Shown here: piece by piece, positions 21,910-27,076 of the stretch
How positions within the stretch are numbered: the stretch's first letter is position 1
How the letters are laid out: each line of letters opens with the position of its first letter
Notes under the pieces: generated by a model
What the model was told of the DNA's origin: nothing
Database searches by the model: none
The model's input: only the letters and a program-made list of their open reading frames with translations
Source: Pseudobdellovibrionaceae bacterium
GTDB lineage: Bacteria; Bdellovibrionota; Bdellovibrionia; Bdellovibrionales; UBA1609
DNA length: 64,000 nt
Reading direction: 5' to 3'
Assembly (NCBI GenBank): GCA_947444305.1
Contig: CANEZP010000012.1
Span: 1-64,000 of the forward strand
Translations under genes and position numbers: made by a program

Positions 21910-23025
21910 ATGTTACGACGAACTCAACTGCGCATCGACAACTCGGCTTTACGTCATAACTTGAATCTACTTAAAAAGTGGAACGGTCCGGCGTTTTTTT
22001 GCCCGATGGTGAAAGCAAACGCCTACGGCCACGGTGCCGAAATGGTCGCGCGGATTGCCGAAGACAACGGCTGTTCGGCGCTCGGGGTAGCCTTAGTCGA
22101 AGAAGGCGTCGCGCTTCGCGAAGCGGGCTTGAAAGGTCCGATCCTCGCCTTCGCACCGTTAAGCGTGGACGGGGCCGCGGCGGTCATCAAAAACCGAATC
22201 ACCCCGGTGCTCGGGCGGTTCGAAGACCTGCTCGCACTTGATCGCGTTCATAATGGTGCTTCGGTCGCCGTTCATCTTAAGTTTAATACCGGAATGCAGC
22301 GGCTCGGCTTCGACGTCGCAGGTTTAGCGCAACTTAAAACCGAACTCGCGGCCAGGTCATGGCTAACGATCGAAGGCTTGTGCACGCATCTCACGCATGG
22401 CGAAGAGGCCGCGCAAACCGGCGGGCCGACCCATTTGCAACTCGAAAAATTTGCCGCGATGACGAACGGGTGGCCGGGGGTACGTCATGCGCACAAGAGC
22501 GCTTCGCTCGCCGTGCTCGCGGGCGAGAAAGCCGACGACGGTCTTGGCGCCCGGCCCGGGATCGGCGTGTACGGTTTGCCCCACGACGGTCGTTTGGTGG
22601 GCGCGGATTTGAGGCCGGTCATGACTTGGGTTAGCGAATTAGTAAATGTTCATACGGTCGAAAAAGGGGAGACCGCTTCTTACTCGGGTCGCTGGACCGC
22701 GCAACGCAATTCTTTGATCGGGGTCGTACCGTTGGGGTACGGCGACGGCTATCTTCGCGCCCTTTCGAACAAGGGCTTTATGCTTTGCCGCGGGATGAGA
22801 GTTCCTGTTGTCGGCAGCGTGTGCATGGATTACACCTTGTTGGATCTAACCGACATCGCAATCGCCAATCCGGCGGCGGAAATCAAAGCGGGAGAACCGG
22901 TCGTGGTTTTAGGACGGCAAGGAAATCAGGAAGTGAGCGCCGCCGATCTCGCCGAGATCGCGGGCACCATTTCGTACGAGATCGTGACGAACATTTCCGC
23001 GCGCGTCCCCCGTGAGGCCGTATGA
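21910..23025 (+). CDS. alr: alanine racemase
   Basis: A 371-residue PLP enzyme converting L- to D-alanine for peptidoglycan. The PLP-binding Lys35 is in MVKANAYGHG; the opposite catalytic Tyr is expected in SVCMDYTLLDL; VPLGYGDGYLR is the usual C-terminal domain landmark. Length is normal. Start ATG follows a GAAG stretch. Its last four bases overlap the mlaE start, tying cell-wall precursor supply to the lipid transport genes in one transcript. Confidence 0.95.
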   Translation: MLRRTQLRIDNSALRHNLNLLKKWNGPAFFCPMVKANAYGHGAEMVARIAEDNGCSALGVALVEEGVALREAGLKGPILAFAPLSVDGAAAVIKNRITPVLGRFEDLLALDRVHNGASVAVHLKFNTGMQRLGFDVAGLAQLKTELAARSWLTIEGLCTHLTHGEEAAQTGGPTHLQLEKFAAMTNGWPGVRHAHKSASLAVLAGEKADDGLGARPGIGVYGLPHDGRLVGADLRPVMTWVSELVNVHTVEKGETASYSGRWTAQRNSLIGVVPLGYGDGYLRALSNKGFMLCRGMRVPVVGSVCMDYTLLDLTDIAIANPAAEIKAGEPVVVLGRQGNQEVSAADLAEIAGTISYEIVTNISARVPREAV

Positions 23026-23864
23026 TTCGCGTTTGGACCGATAATCGCGAGCGCATCAATACCGCGATCGACGACTTTGCGGGACGCATATTTAATGGCC
23101 TCGGCAAATTTTTCGTCGACTGCGGCAAAGCCTGCATCTTCTTCGCGCAAAGCGTGGTTTTGATTTTTAAAGGTCCATTCCGTTGGGATGAAATCATTCG
23201 GCACATGGAATTCATCGGAAACCGTTCGGTGTTGATCATCGCGATGACCTCGGTGTTCACGGGGATGGCACTTTCGTACCAAATCTTTCTCGGCTTCGTA
23301 AAAGTGAATGCGACTAATTTGGTGGGTCCAACGGTCGGCATGGGAATTTTGCGCGAACTCGGCCCGGTGCTTACCGGGTTGATGGTGGCCGCGCGCGCGG
23401 GTGGTGCGATGGCGGCTCGCCTCGGAACCATGCGCGTAAGCGAGCAGATCGATGCGCTGGAAGTCATGGGCATCGACTCAAAACAATATTTGGTAGCCCC
23501 ACGTATTCTGGCCGCGGTGATCACCGTACCCATGCTCTGCGCGATCTTTGATTTCATGGCGATGATGGGCTCGCATTTTTTAACGATCACGGTCTTGCGC
23601 CAAGACGAAGCCATCTTCTGGGATAAAATTTCGTTGTGGCTAAATCCAGGCGACGTGTATCAAGGTTTGTTTAAAGCGGCCGTCTTCGGCGTTTGTTTCG
23701 CGACCATTTGTTCGAACCGCGGCTTCAATGCCAGCGGGGGCGCGAAAGGCGTGGGCGAGGCGACCAATCAAGGCGTCGTCAACTCGATGGTTCTGATCAT
23801 CGTGTTAAATTTCTTTCTCACAAATTTCATCCGCTTCTTTTACGTGGCGATGGGCTGGCGATGA
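23022..23864 (+). CDS. mlaE: MlaE/YrbE-type permease of MCE lipid transporter
   Basis: A 280-residue inner membrane permease. Family landmarks are ILRELGPVLTGLMVAARAGGAMAARLGTMRVSEQIDALEVMG (residues ~109-150), several TM segments, and an amphipathic N-terminal helix lying along the membrane. It should form a dimer with MlaF below and MlaD above to move phospholipids between the membranes. Overlaps alr and mlaF by four bases each (ATGA). Confidence 0.92.
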   Translation: MIRVWTDNRERINTAIDDFAGRIFNGLGKFFVDCGKACIFFAQSVVLIFKGPFRWDEIIRHMEFIGNRSVLIIAMTSVFTGMALSYQIFLGFVKVNATNLVGPTVGMGILRELGPVLTGLMVAARAGGAMAARLGTMRVSEQIDALEVMGIDSKQYLVAPRILAAVITVPMLCAIFDFMAMMGSHFLTITVLRQDEAIFWDKISLWLNPGDVYQGLFKAAVFGVCFATICSNRGFNASGGAKGVGEATNQGVVNSMVLIIVLNFFLTNFIRFFYVAMGWR

Positions 23865-24652
23865 GCGAAGCGAATCCAGATCAGACGCCCTCCACCGGCA
23901 CGGCAATACACATCAAGGACCTGCGTAAGTCTTTCGACGGCGGCAAAGATTTCGTCTTAAACGGCGTTAATCTTGAAATTCCTAAGGGTGTCGTCACGTG
24001 CATCATCGGTTTTTCGGGGACCGGTAAGAGCGTCTTGCTCAAACATATTCTTGGATTAATGAAACCCACTTCGGGTACCGTCGAAATTCTTGGTAACGAT
24101 CTTTCGGGCATGAACATGGATCAGCTCATCAAGATGCGGACCCGGCTCGGAGTTTTGTTCCAGTACGCAGCGCTATTCGACGACATGTCGGTCATGGACA
24201 ACGTCATCTTCCCGCTGCGGGAGCACCGTAAAGAATTAAAATTGCACGACATGGAAGAGATCGCGAAAAAGAAACTCGCGCAGGTCGGGTTGGATCCGAA
24301 GCATTTTCATAAGCTTCCGTCGGAACTATCAGGCGGTATGCGTAAACGGGTCGGCTTAGCCCGTGCACTGGCCCTTGATCCTGAAATCATCCTCTACGAT
24401 GAGCCGACGACTGGACTAGACCCTATTTTAACGGAAGTTGTGGATGATCTGATTGTCGAAACTCACAAGGCCCATGCGGGTTCTACGTCGGTGGTCATTT
24501 CCCACGACCTTTTTGCGGCTTTTCGAATCTCGGATCATATAGTTATGCTGGATAAGGGCGGCGTGTTACTGGCGGGCAAGCCCGATGAATTTTTAAAATC
24601 TGAAAATGAACTGATTAAGAAGTTTCTGTCCAAAGGACTAAAGCAAGGGTAA
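23861..24652 (+). CDS. mlaF: MlaF-type ATPase of MCE lipid transporter
   Basis: A 263-residue ABC ATPase. The start at 23861 overlaps the mlaE stop as ATGA; a longer frame to 23693 merely runs antiphase through mlaE. Walker A GFSGTGKS (50-57), signature LSGGMRKRVGLARAL, Walker B IILYDEPTTGLDP and switch His in VISHD are intact. Closely follows the MlaF pattern (signature GGMRKR). Confidence 0.93.
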   Translation: MSEANPDQTPSTGTAIHIKDLRKSFDGGKDFVLNGVNLEIPKGVVTCIIGFSGTGKSVLLKHILGLMKPTSGTVEILGNDLSGMNMDQLIKMRTRLGVLFQYAALFDDMSVMDNVIFPLREHRKELKLHDMEEIAKKKLAQVGLDPKHFHKLPSELSGGMRKRVGLARALALDPEIILYDEPTTGLDPILTEVVDDLIVETHKAHAGSTSVVISHDLFAAFRISDHIVMLDKGGVLLAGKPDEFLKSENELIKKFLSKGLKQG

Positions 24653-24729: not shown

Positions 24730-26079
24730 GTGATATCGTGGCTGGGCACTCCAGAATTTAAAGTCGGTTTCCTCGTCGTCGTGGTCAGCACGCTGGTCGG
24801 CGGCATGGCCATGAAGTTGGCCGAGGGCCCGGGCATGTTCACCAGCACCAAAAATTATTTCTTCCGCGCCGATTCCGCCGGCGGCTTGATTCCAAATAGC
24901 GCCGTAAAAATGGCCGGCATAAAAATCGGGATCATCGACGACATCATTTTAGAAGAAGGCCGCGCCCGCATCGTCATCGCTTTGGACGGCGACGCCAAAA
25001 TTACCGAAGGCTCAACGGTCACGCTGAAGTCCGACGGTATCTTGGGCGATAAGCACGTAGAAGTCGAACCCGGTAAACCCGACGCCGCCGTTTTGCCGTC
25101 GGGCAGTGAACTTAAACTCGCCACCGGCAAAGGCGGGATGGACGACGTGATGGCGGATGTCTCACGCGTCGCTAAATCCATGAACGATCTGCTCGACATG
25201 TTGAACAAAGCCGCCAAGGACGCCGATGACTCGACGGCCATCGGTCGCATCATGGGCAACATCGAGGACGTCACCGCCGACCTAAGCGAGATCACCGGCG
25301 AGAACAAAGGCAAATTGACCGAAATCTTGGAACGTATTCGCAATCTCTCCAAGAACGTCGACACGTACATCAACGAAGAAACGCTTAGCCGCGTCGATCG
25401 CTCGCTCAAAAATATCGAAGAGGTCACGGCCAAGATCAACAAGGGCGAAGGCACGCTGGGCCGCTTGATCAACGACGAACAAACGGTTGAAGAGCTGAAC
25501 ACCGCGATTTCATCGGTAAATAAATTCCTCGGCGGCGCAGACAAACTCGAAACCTCGATCGACTTCCACACCGAATTTTTGGCTAACAATTCGACTTCGA
25601 AATCCTTCATCGGTTTGCGGCTGCAGCCGGGCTTAGATCGTTATTACGAAATTCAGGCGATCGACGATCCCGAGGGAACGGTACGTTCCACATTGACCAC
25701 GACGTCCACGAACGGCGGGCCGGATCAAACGTTCGAAGAGACGACTTCGTACCGCAACAAACTCAAGATCACGGCCATCTTCGCCAAGAATTTTTGGGAT
25801 CTCACCATCAAAGGCGGTATCATCGAAAACGCCGGCGGGATCGGGCTCGATTACTTCTTCCTCGGCCGCCAGCTTCGTTTATCGGCCGAGTTCTTCAATT
25901 TCGAAGATCTGCAAATCCGTACGTTCGCACGCTACAATTTCTTTAAGGGCGCTTACGTCATCGCGGGCGGCGACAACCTCATGGGCGCGGAAAACGAAAA
26001 CGCTTCCGTCTTCGTGGGCGCGGGCCTCTTCATCACCAACGACGATCTAAAAATGCTGGCGGCACGTTTCTCGTTCTAG
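24730..26079 (+). CDS. mlaD: MlaD-family (MCE) protein with barrel-like C-terminal domain
   Basis: A 449-residue protein starting with GTG, with AAGG eight bases upstream. Residues ~8-30 are a TM anchor; ~38-125 an MCE domain (FFRADSAGGLIPNSAVKMAGIKIG, then SDGILGDKHVEV). Residues ~130-280 are helical and coiled-coil-like. The last ~165 residues are a series of amphipathic strands (IGLRLQPGLDRYYEIQA, KITAIFAKNFWDLTIKGG, LQIRTFARYNFF, SVFVGAGLFI) ending AARFSF. A terminal Phe after such strands is a feature of outer membrane barrels. E. coli MlaD has only the anchor and MCE domain. It probably bridges MlaEF towards the outer membrane. Confidence 0.85.
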   Translation: MISWLGTPEFKVGFLVVVVSTLVGGMAMKLAEGPGMFTSTKNYFFRADSAGGLIPNSAVKMAGIKIGIIDDIILEEGRARIVIALDGDAKITEGSTVTLKSDGILGDKHVEVEPGKPDAAVLPSGSELKLATGKGGMDDVMADVSRVAKSMNDLLDMLNKAAKDADDSTAIGRIMGNIEDVTADLSEITGENKGKLTEILERIRNLSKNVDTYINEETLSRVDRSLKNIEEVTAKINKGEGTLGRLINDEQTVEELNTAISSVNKFLGGADKLETSIDFHTEFLANNSTSKSFIGLRLQPGLDRYYEIQAIDDPEGTVRSTLTTTSTNGGPDQTFEETTSYRNKLKITAIFAKNFWDLTIKGGIIENAGGIGLDYFFLGRQLRLSAEFFNFEDLQIRTFARYNFFKGAYVIAGGDNLMGAENENASVFVGAGLFITNDDLKMLAARFSF

Positions 26080-26242: not shown

Positions 26243-27076
26243 ATGCGCTCGGTTAAACACATGGCCTGCCTGGTTGCCGTGAGCCATCTCGTTTTTTTTG
26301 CAACAACGGGCAGTGCCAATGTCTTTAATAAGAGCGGAAAAGACCCTCTTGTTAAACAAACTAAAAGTGGGACGTACGCGGCCATCGGTCGCATCGTCGC
26401 GAATCAACCTGTCCCATGGAGCAAAAATCCGACTGGATTCGCGCAAAGTTTCGAAAGTACCGGATTTCTTGTGTCGCCGTGTTTAATCATGACGAGTTAT
26501 CATTCCGTTTTCGGCAATTCGAAACATCCGAACGCGAAAGATTTTACGGTTACTTTTCACGCACACCGCTCCGTCTTGGCTACGCCCGTTGCTTGGGGAC
26601 CTCGCGAAAGTTCCGGGCGACCGGCCGATGATTGGACCCTACTGAGCGTCGCTGCGGGCGATTGTCTTGGTAAGGAATTGGGTTGGCTGCAGTTTCCAAA
26701 AATATCAATTCACGACCTACCCGCAGGTAAACTAAAAACTGCCGGATATCCGGGCCGAAAGTTTGACGATAAGCAGCCTGACCAGTTGTGGGCCCACCGC
26801 AGCTGTAGCGCATATAGCTCATACAATATTCCGCTCGCTGCGGGAACTATTCTCAATGATTGCGCATTAAGTCCGGGGCAGTCGGGCAGTCCAATCTTTT
26901 ATGAAGGTGAAGGTGGACAATTATTTTATCTCGGAATCCAGACCGGTTCGTTTAATCCGACGCCGGAAATCTTAAGGAATTACGATTCTAAGTATGCCAA
27001 CACGGCCGTAAATCTCACGTCCATCGACGATTCCGCTCTTATAGCTATCGGTGCCGACTTACAAAAAAACAAATAG
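26243..27076 (+). CDS. secreted trypsin-like serine protease
   Basis: A 277-residue exported protease. The signal peptide covers about residues 1-25. The triad fits S1 peptidases: His87 in MTSYHSVFG, Asp130 in DDWTLL and Ser214 in GQSGSP, which replaces the usual GDSGGP. Extra Cys (C80, C140, C188, C207) could form disulphides. GGGAA precedes the ATG by about five bases. The gene looks more AT-rich than its neighbours and stands alone between operons, so recent acquisition is possible. Target proteins unknown; predatory and secreted use would fit the presumed host lineage. Confidence 0.8.
   Translation: MRSVKHMACLVAVSHLVFFATTGSANVFNKSGKDPLVKQTKSGTYAAIGRIVANQPVPWSKNPTGFAQSFESTGFLVSPCLIMTSYHSVFGNSKHPNAKDFTVTFHAHRSVLATPVAWGPRESSGRPADDWTLLSVAAGDCLGKELGWLQFPKISIHDLPAGKLKTAGYPGRKFDDKQPDQLWAHRSCSAYSSYNIPLAAGTILNDCALSPGQSGSPIFYEGEGGQLFYLGIQTGSFNPTPEILRNYDSKYANTAVNLTSIDDSALIAIGADLQKNK

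What the first reader, a model, noticed from the sequence alone, without database searches (positions are those of the whole stretch)
24730..26079. MlaD-family protein with a predicted C-terminal outer membrane barrel
One polypeptide has an inner-membrane anchor, an MCE domain, a ~150-residue helical spacer and a strand-rich ~165-residue end finishing in Phe. If the end inserts in the outer membrane, this would be a self-contained lipid bridge across the periplasm, unlike E. coli MlaD, which needs MlaC. No mlaC or mlaA lies next to it. Domain order is read from the sequence; the function is inference.
Basis: partly seen in the sequence, partly recalled or inferred. Interest (0 to 1): 0.65.

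Follow-up and report, generated by a model that had tools for sequence, protein, structure and literature searches.

The report
Long MlaD with outer-membrane barrel
[quoted passage not shown] it is a well-supported new example of a design already described in Veillonella in 2023, not a new kind of machine.

Summary
Window 24730-26079 encodes a 449-residue MCE (MlaD) protein with an inner-membrane helix, one MCE domain, about 134 residues of amphipathic helix, and a strand-rich end. Modelled alone with five relatives, the end is a ten-stranded antiparallel barrel plus a short terminal helix (pLDDT 79.9). Eight of ten strands have one nearly uncharged hydrophobic face, and the best structural matches are outer-membrane barrels. 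The gene is third in a tight mlaE-mlaF-mlaD operon. In 192 genomes of its phylum (Bdellovibrionota) the barrel domain occurs in 153 and MlaA in none. The genome has one weak, orphan MlaC-like gene and four other MCE loci, all short and barrel-less. Two corrections: the final Phe lies on a terminal helix and is not conserved, so it is not the usual outer-membrane signal; and the protein presumably works with the adjacent MlaE and MlaF. Bridge function here remains inferred.

The parts
24730..26079 (+). long-form mlaD: 449-aa MCE protein with C-terminal beta-barrel
   Evidence: ORF; PF02470 57.3 bits; full-length homologues through the phylum
24751..24819 (+). N-terminal inner-membrane anchor, residues 8-30
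   Evidence: helix 8-30 in the model; hydrophobic stretch conserved in homologues
24847..25074 (+). MCE (MlaD) domain, residues 40-115
   Evidence: PF02470; structural matches to E. coli, P. aeruginosa and A. baumannii MlaD and mycobacterial Mce1
25138..25539 (+). helical spacer, residues 137-270, amphipathic, presumed hexameric tunnel wall
   Evidence: five helices in the model, at low confidence; helical hydrophobic moment 1.25 against 0.58 +/- 0.09 in shuffles
25546..26037 (+). ten-stranded antiparallel barrel, residues 273-436, predicted outer-membrane domain
   Evidence: isolated model pLDDT 79.9, pTM 0.71; matches to OpcA, Pla/OmpT, designed TMB10; face analysis; in 153 of 192 genomes of the phylum
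26038..26067 (+). C-terminal helix after the last strand, residues 437-446, with conserved (N/D)(D/E)D(L/I)K motif (D439 invariant in 55 sequences)
23022..23864 (+). mlaE, permease of the same transporter (280 aa); start overlaps the stop of alr by ATGA
   Evidence: PF02405 E=2e-73 and TIGR00056 over its cut-off
23861..24652 (+). mlaF, ATPase of the same transporter (263 aa); start overlaps the stop of mlaE by ATGA
   Evidence: PF00005, MlaF model among the two best NCBIfam matches though below its equivalog cut-off

Best explanation
It is the MCE subunit of a minimal three-part Mla transporter (MlaEFD), of the long, barrel-bearing MlaD type. Most likely mechanism: six copies form an MCE ring anchored by their N-terminal helices around the MlaE2F2 permease-ATPase in the inner membrane; their helical segments pack into a hydrophobic tube across the periplasm; and six ten-stranded barrels fix the far end in the outer membrane. 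Phospholipid then moves along the tube, driven by ATP hydrolysis, without MlaC or MlaA. Shown here by computation: domain order, operon, conservation, and the predicted barrel fold. Inferred from V. parvula and from solved MCE structures: hexamer, tube, outer-membrane insertion, phospholipid as cargo. Direction (outer to inner membrane) is inferred from V. parvula only and is the least certain step.
For: mlaE-mlaF-mlaD operon with ATGA overlaps alr/mlaE and mlaE/mlaF, conserved as mlaE-mlaF-mlaD in nearly all homologous loci examined. MCE domain and Mce/MlaD structural matches. The C-terminal domain alone models as a ten-stranded barrel plus terminal helix; top structural matches are outer-membrane barrels: OpcA Z 15.7, Pla Z 14.2, designed TMB10 Z 12.7 at rmsd 2.8 over 129 residues. 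Eight of ten strands keep one hydrophobic face with at most 1% charged residues over 55 sequences, and the overall contrast exceeds all 2000 shuffles; turns on the side of the termini are short (3, 2, 4, 4) and those on the other side total 38 residues (4, 17, 2, 5, 10), as in outer-membrane proteins. Amphipathic helical spacer, about 134 residues, i.e. about 20 nm if helical end to end. No MlaA in 192 genomes. Same architecture and strand number in V. parvula, where the separate domains fractionate to inner and outer membrane (PMC10665443).
Against: No experiment in this organism. The full-length model is weak (mean pLDDT 54.6, spacer under 50). Only six sequences could be used for the models. 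Two strands (304-321 and 339-355) have 22-26% charged residues even on their better face. The terminal Phe is not a conserved outer-membrane signal. An orphan MlaC-like gene exists.
Confidence: 0.83

Rival explanations
1. The C-terminal domain is a soluble, lipid-binding ten-stranded barrel (nitrobindin- or lipocalin-like) at the tip of the tube, which hands lipid to something else rather than entering the outer membrane.
For: Nitrobindin-type soluble barrels score Z about 11 over 134 residues at 3.4-3.6 A. A soluble barrel would also have one hydrophobic face.
Against: Outer-membrane barrels rank higher (OpcA 15.7, Pla 14.2, TMB10 12.7). Loop lengths follow the outer-membrane rule. The V. parvula counterpart sorts to the outer-membrane fractions.
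Confidence: 0.1
2. It spans the periplasm but is loaded or completed by the genome's orphan MlaC-like protein, so it is a variant of the shuttle system.
For: An MlaC-like gene exists at G000:C15:12187-12594, 28.9 bits.
Against: That match is borderline and sits beside an acyl-CoA ligase with no mla gene near. MlaC is found in only 21 of 153 barrel-bearing genomes against 27 of 39 barrel-less ones. MlaA is absent everywhere searched in the phylum.
Confidence: 0.05

Closest known systems
Long, barrel-bearing MlaD of Veillonella parvula (MlaEFD, Grasekamp et al. 2023, PMC10665443)
   Same: Transmembrane helix, one MCE domain, about 150-residue helical stretch, ten-stranded C-terminal barrel, mlaEFD operon, no MlaA; length 419 against 449 aa.
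   Different: Another phylum (Bdellovibrionota); operon not followed by tolC and tamB; genome also has four barrel-less MCE loci and an orphan MlaC-like gene. No direct sequence comparison with V. parvula MlaD was possible here.
E. coli MlaD / MlaFEDB (TIGR04430)
   Same: MCE domain, transmembrane anchor, MlaE and MlaF partners.
   Different: E. coli MlaD is 183 aa without spacer tube or barrel and depends on MlaC and MlaA; the window protein scores 64 bits against the equivalog cut-off of 135.
Mycobacterial Mce1 complex (8fed)
   Same: MCE ring extended by a long helical tube.
   Different: Hetero-hexamer, no complete ten-stranded barrel per subunit; TIGR00996 89.1 bits against cut-off 140.5.
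PqiB / LetB
   Same: MCE proteins that can span the periplasm (own knowledge; PqiB tube also in PMC10665443).
   Different: Several stacked MCE domains instead of one, no C-terminal barrel, no MlaF-type ATPase.

Membership tests
MCE/MlaD superfamily (PF02470) | MCE domain over the curated cut-off | tested here: met
   57.3 bits, cut-off 25.1
Long barrel-bearing MlaD (Grasekamp type) | one transmembrane helix + one MCE domain + long helical region | tested here: met
Long barrel-bearing MlaD (Grasekamp type) | C-terminal ten-stranded beta-barrel | tested here: met
   ten strands, pLDDT 79.9; outer-membrane barrel matches; a prediction, not a solved structure
Long barrel-bearing MlaD (Grasekamp type) | encoded with mlaE and mlaF | tested here: met
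Long barrel-bearing MlaD (Grasekamp type) | no MlaA and no MlaC in the genome (a tendency, not a strict rule, in PMC10665443) | tested here: inconclusive
   MlaA absent; one weak orphan MlaC-like match
Long barrel-bearing MlaD (Grasekamp type) | barrel located in the outer membrane, MCE part in the inner membrane | not testable with these tools
   needs fractionation
Long barrel-bearing MlaD (Grasekamp type) | hexamer forming a closed hydrophobic tube | not testable with these tools
E. coli-type MlaD (TIGR04430) | equivalog score over cut-off | tested here: not met
   64 bits, cut-off 135
Mycobacterial Mce family (TIGR00996) | score over cut-off | tested here: not met
   89.1 bits, cut-off 140.5

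The most novel reading that the evidence does not exclude
In Bdellovibrionota the barrel-bearing bridge is the conserved envelope phospholipid route and runs beside several barrel-less MCE transporters with different cargo or direction. In these predators it may carry lipid outward to build outer membrane during growth in prey, rather than only inward for repair.
Probability: 0.12. Interest if true: 0.55.

Novelty: new member of a known kind. Interest (0 to 1): 0.3.

Why it matters
It extends an experimentally supported, fairly recent finding (MlaD as a one-piece bridge between the two membranes) to a whole phylum that includes the tractable predator Bdellovibrio. There the bridge is widespread and MlaA was not found. 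That would allow the bridge model to be tested in a Gram-negative outside the Firmicutes.

Tried and rejected
Scans of viral contigs for more homologues found none, and plasmids none. The barrel has no sequence match to any solved structure. The full-length model is too weak to say anything about the spacer or the hexamer; its twelve-strand reading of the C-terminus is superseded by the better isolated model with ten. The terminal Phe as an outer-membrane signal was rejected: it is on a helix and not conserved. The inverse association of barrel and MlaC (Fisher p about 3e-11) was not used as proof of replacement: it rests on a few clades (three families, f8-f10, give most of it), and tblastn found no mlaE or mlaD beside the nine MlaC-like genes examined, so they may belong to other pathways; only weakly similar ABC ATPases turned up at two of them. 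V. parvula MlaD itself could not be fetched for direct comparison. A simple sliding-window test for strand amphipathy was weaker (24 of 1000 shuffles reach it) than the test on the modelled strands.

Full report
What is there. The window lies in a 4.17-Mb draft genome (97% complete) whose nearest named relatives are Bdellovibrionales. The ORF at 24730-26079 encodes 449 residues. Residues 40-115 match the MlaD/MCE domain at 57.3 bits. It stands third in an operon: mlaE (23022-23864; PF02405, E=2e-73), mlaF (23861-24652; ABC ATPase, MlaF-like) and mlaD, with ATGA overlaps between alr and mlaE and between mlaE and mlaF. The order alr-mlaE-mlaF-mlaD-purH is kept in those relatives whose flanks are long enough to see it.

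Is the C-terminus a barrel? The full-length model with six sequences is poor (pLDDT 54.6); Grasekamp et al. likewise could not model the spacer of V. parvula MlaD with confidence. The C-terminal 187 residues alone give a good model (pLDDT 79.9, pTM 0.71): ten antiparallel strands and a final helix. VIA-align ranks outer-membrane barrels highest, namely OpcA (Z 15.7), Pla (14.2) and, among others, the designed ten-stranded TMB10 (12.7 at 2.8 A); soluble nitrobindins come lower at about 11. Foldseek likewise lists mostly outer-membrane proteins, though with weak E-values of 1e-3 and above. Over 55 sequences, eight of the ten strands have a hydrophobic face with at most 1% charged residues, and the total contrast between faces exceeds all 2000 shuffles. 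An even number of strands puts both termini on the periplasmic side; the loops on that side are 3, 2, 4 and 4 residues, and the opposite ones 4, 17, 2, 5 and 10. The long one also varies in length between species (13-24 residues). All of this is what an outer-membrane barrel looks like.

How common is it? Relatives occur in 174 of 192 genomes of the phylum by sequence (some of the weaker matches cover only the MCE and helical part). A profile of the barrel domain alone finds it in 153 of 192. MlaA is in none. MlaC-like proteins are in 48: 21 of 153 genomes with the barrel and 27 of 39 without. The trend fits the statement by Grasekamp et al. that barrel MlaD tends to go with absence of MlaA and MlaC. 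However, it is carried by a few clades, and no mlaE or mlaD was detected beside the MlaC-like genes examined.

The rest of the genome. There are four more MCE loci: mlaEFD with a 263-aa MlaD (C11), a locus with two ATPases, two permeases and a 260-aa MCE protein (C3), a PqiA/PqiB-like pair (C5), and another mlaEFD-type operon with a 293-aa MCE protein (C13). The barrel profile matches only the window protein in this genome. The genome also has LptD and TamB, so it has the parts expected for a lipopolysaccharide outer membrane and for the proposed outward lipid route that opposes Mla in V. parvula.

What it most likely does. By precedent (PMC10665443), six copies form a tube from the MlaEF complex to the outer membrane, and phospholipid moves through it. 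In V. parvula the mutants are sensitive to SDS/EDTA, shed vesicles relatively enriched in phosphatidylethanolamine, and are partly suppressed by tamB loss; the separate domains fractionate to the two membranes. For the window protein the fold, operon and conservation are shown by computation; the hexamer, the tube, the cargo and the direction are inferred.

Novelty. The architecture was published in 2023, with a barrel inferred in 103 sequences across diderm bacteria. No paper in the library combines MlaD, the Mla system and Bdellovibrio, so the phylum-wide survey here may be new in detail, but the kind is known. Interest is therefore modest.

Noticed in passing
L065:1974-5716 (G000:C3): MCE locus with two different MlaF-type ATPases and two different MlaE-type permeases followed by one short MCE protein, suggesting a hetero-dimeric transporter.
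   Followed up: no
L063:4053-4637 (G000:C15): Orphan MlaC-like secreted protein next to a long-chain acyl-CoA ligase, with no mla gene nearby; its partner is unknown.
   Followed up: partly
L066:4095-5577 (G000:C5): Miniature PqiA/PqiB pair: a PqiA-like protein of 218 aa and a two-MCE-domain protein of only 290 aa.
   Followed up: no
26243-27076: Secreted trypsin-like protease gene (PF13365) between mlaD and purH; in most related genera purH follows mlaD closely, while the same-genus relative L038 has a 4.2-kb gap there.
   Followed up: partly
L067:2748-4937 (G000:C13): A further mlaE-mlaF-mlaD operon with a 293-aa MCE protein lies directly beside an FtsX-type permease resembling LolC/LolE.
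   Followed up: no
26038-26067: Terminal helix after the barrel carries a strongly conserved (N/D)(D/E)D(L/I)K motif (D439 invariant in 55 homologues) whose role is unknown; it might plug or cap the barrel.
   Followed up: partly
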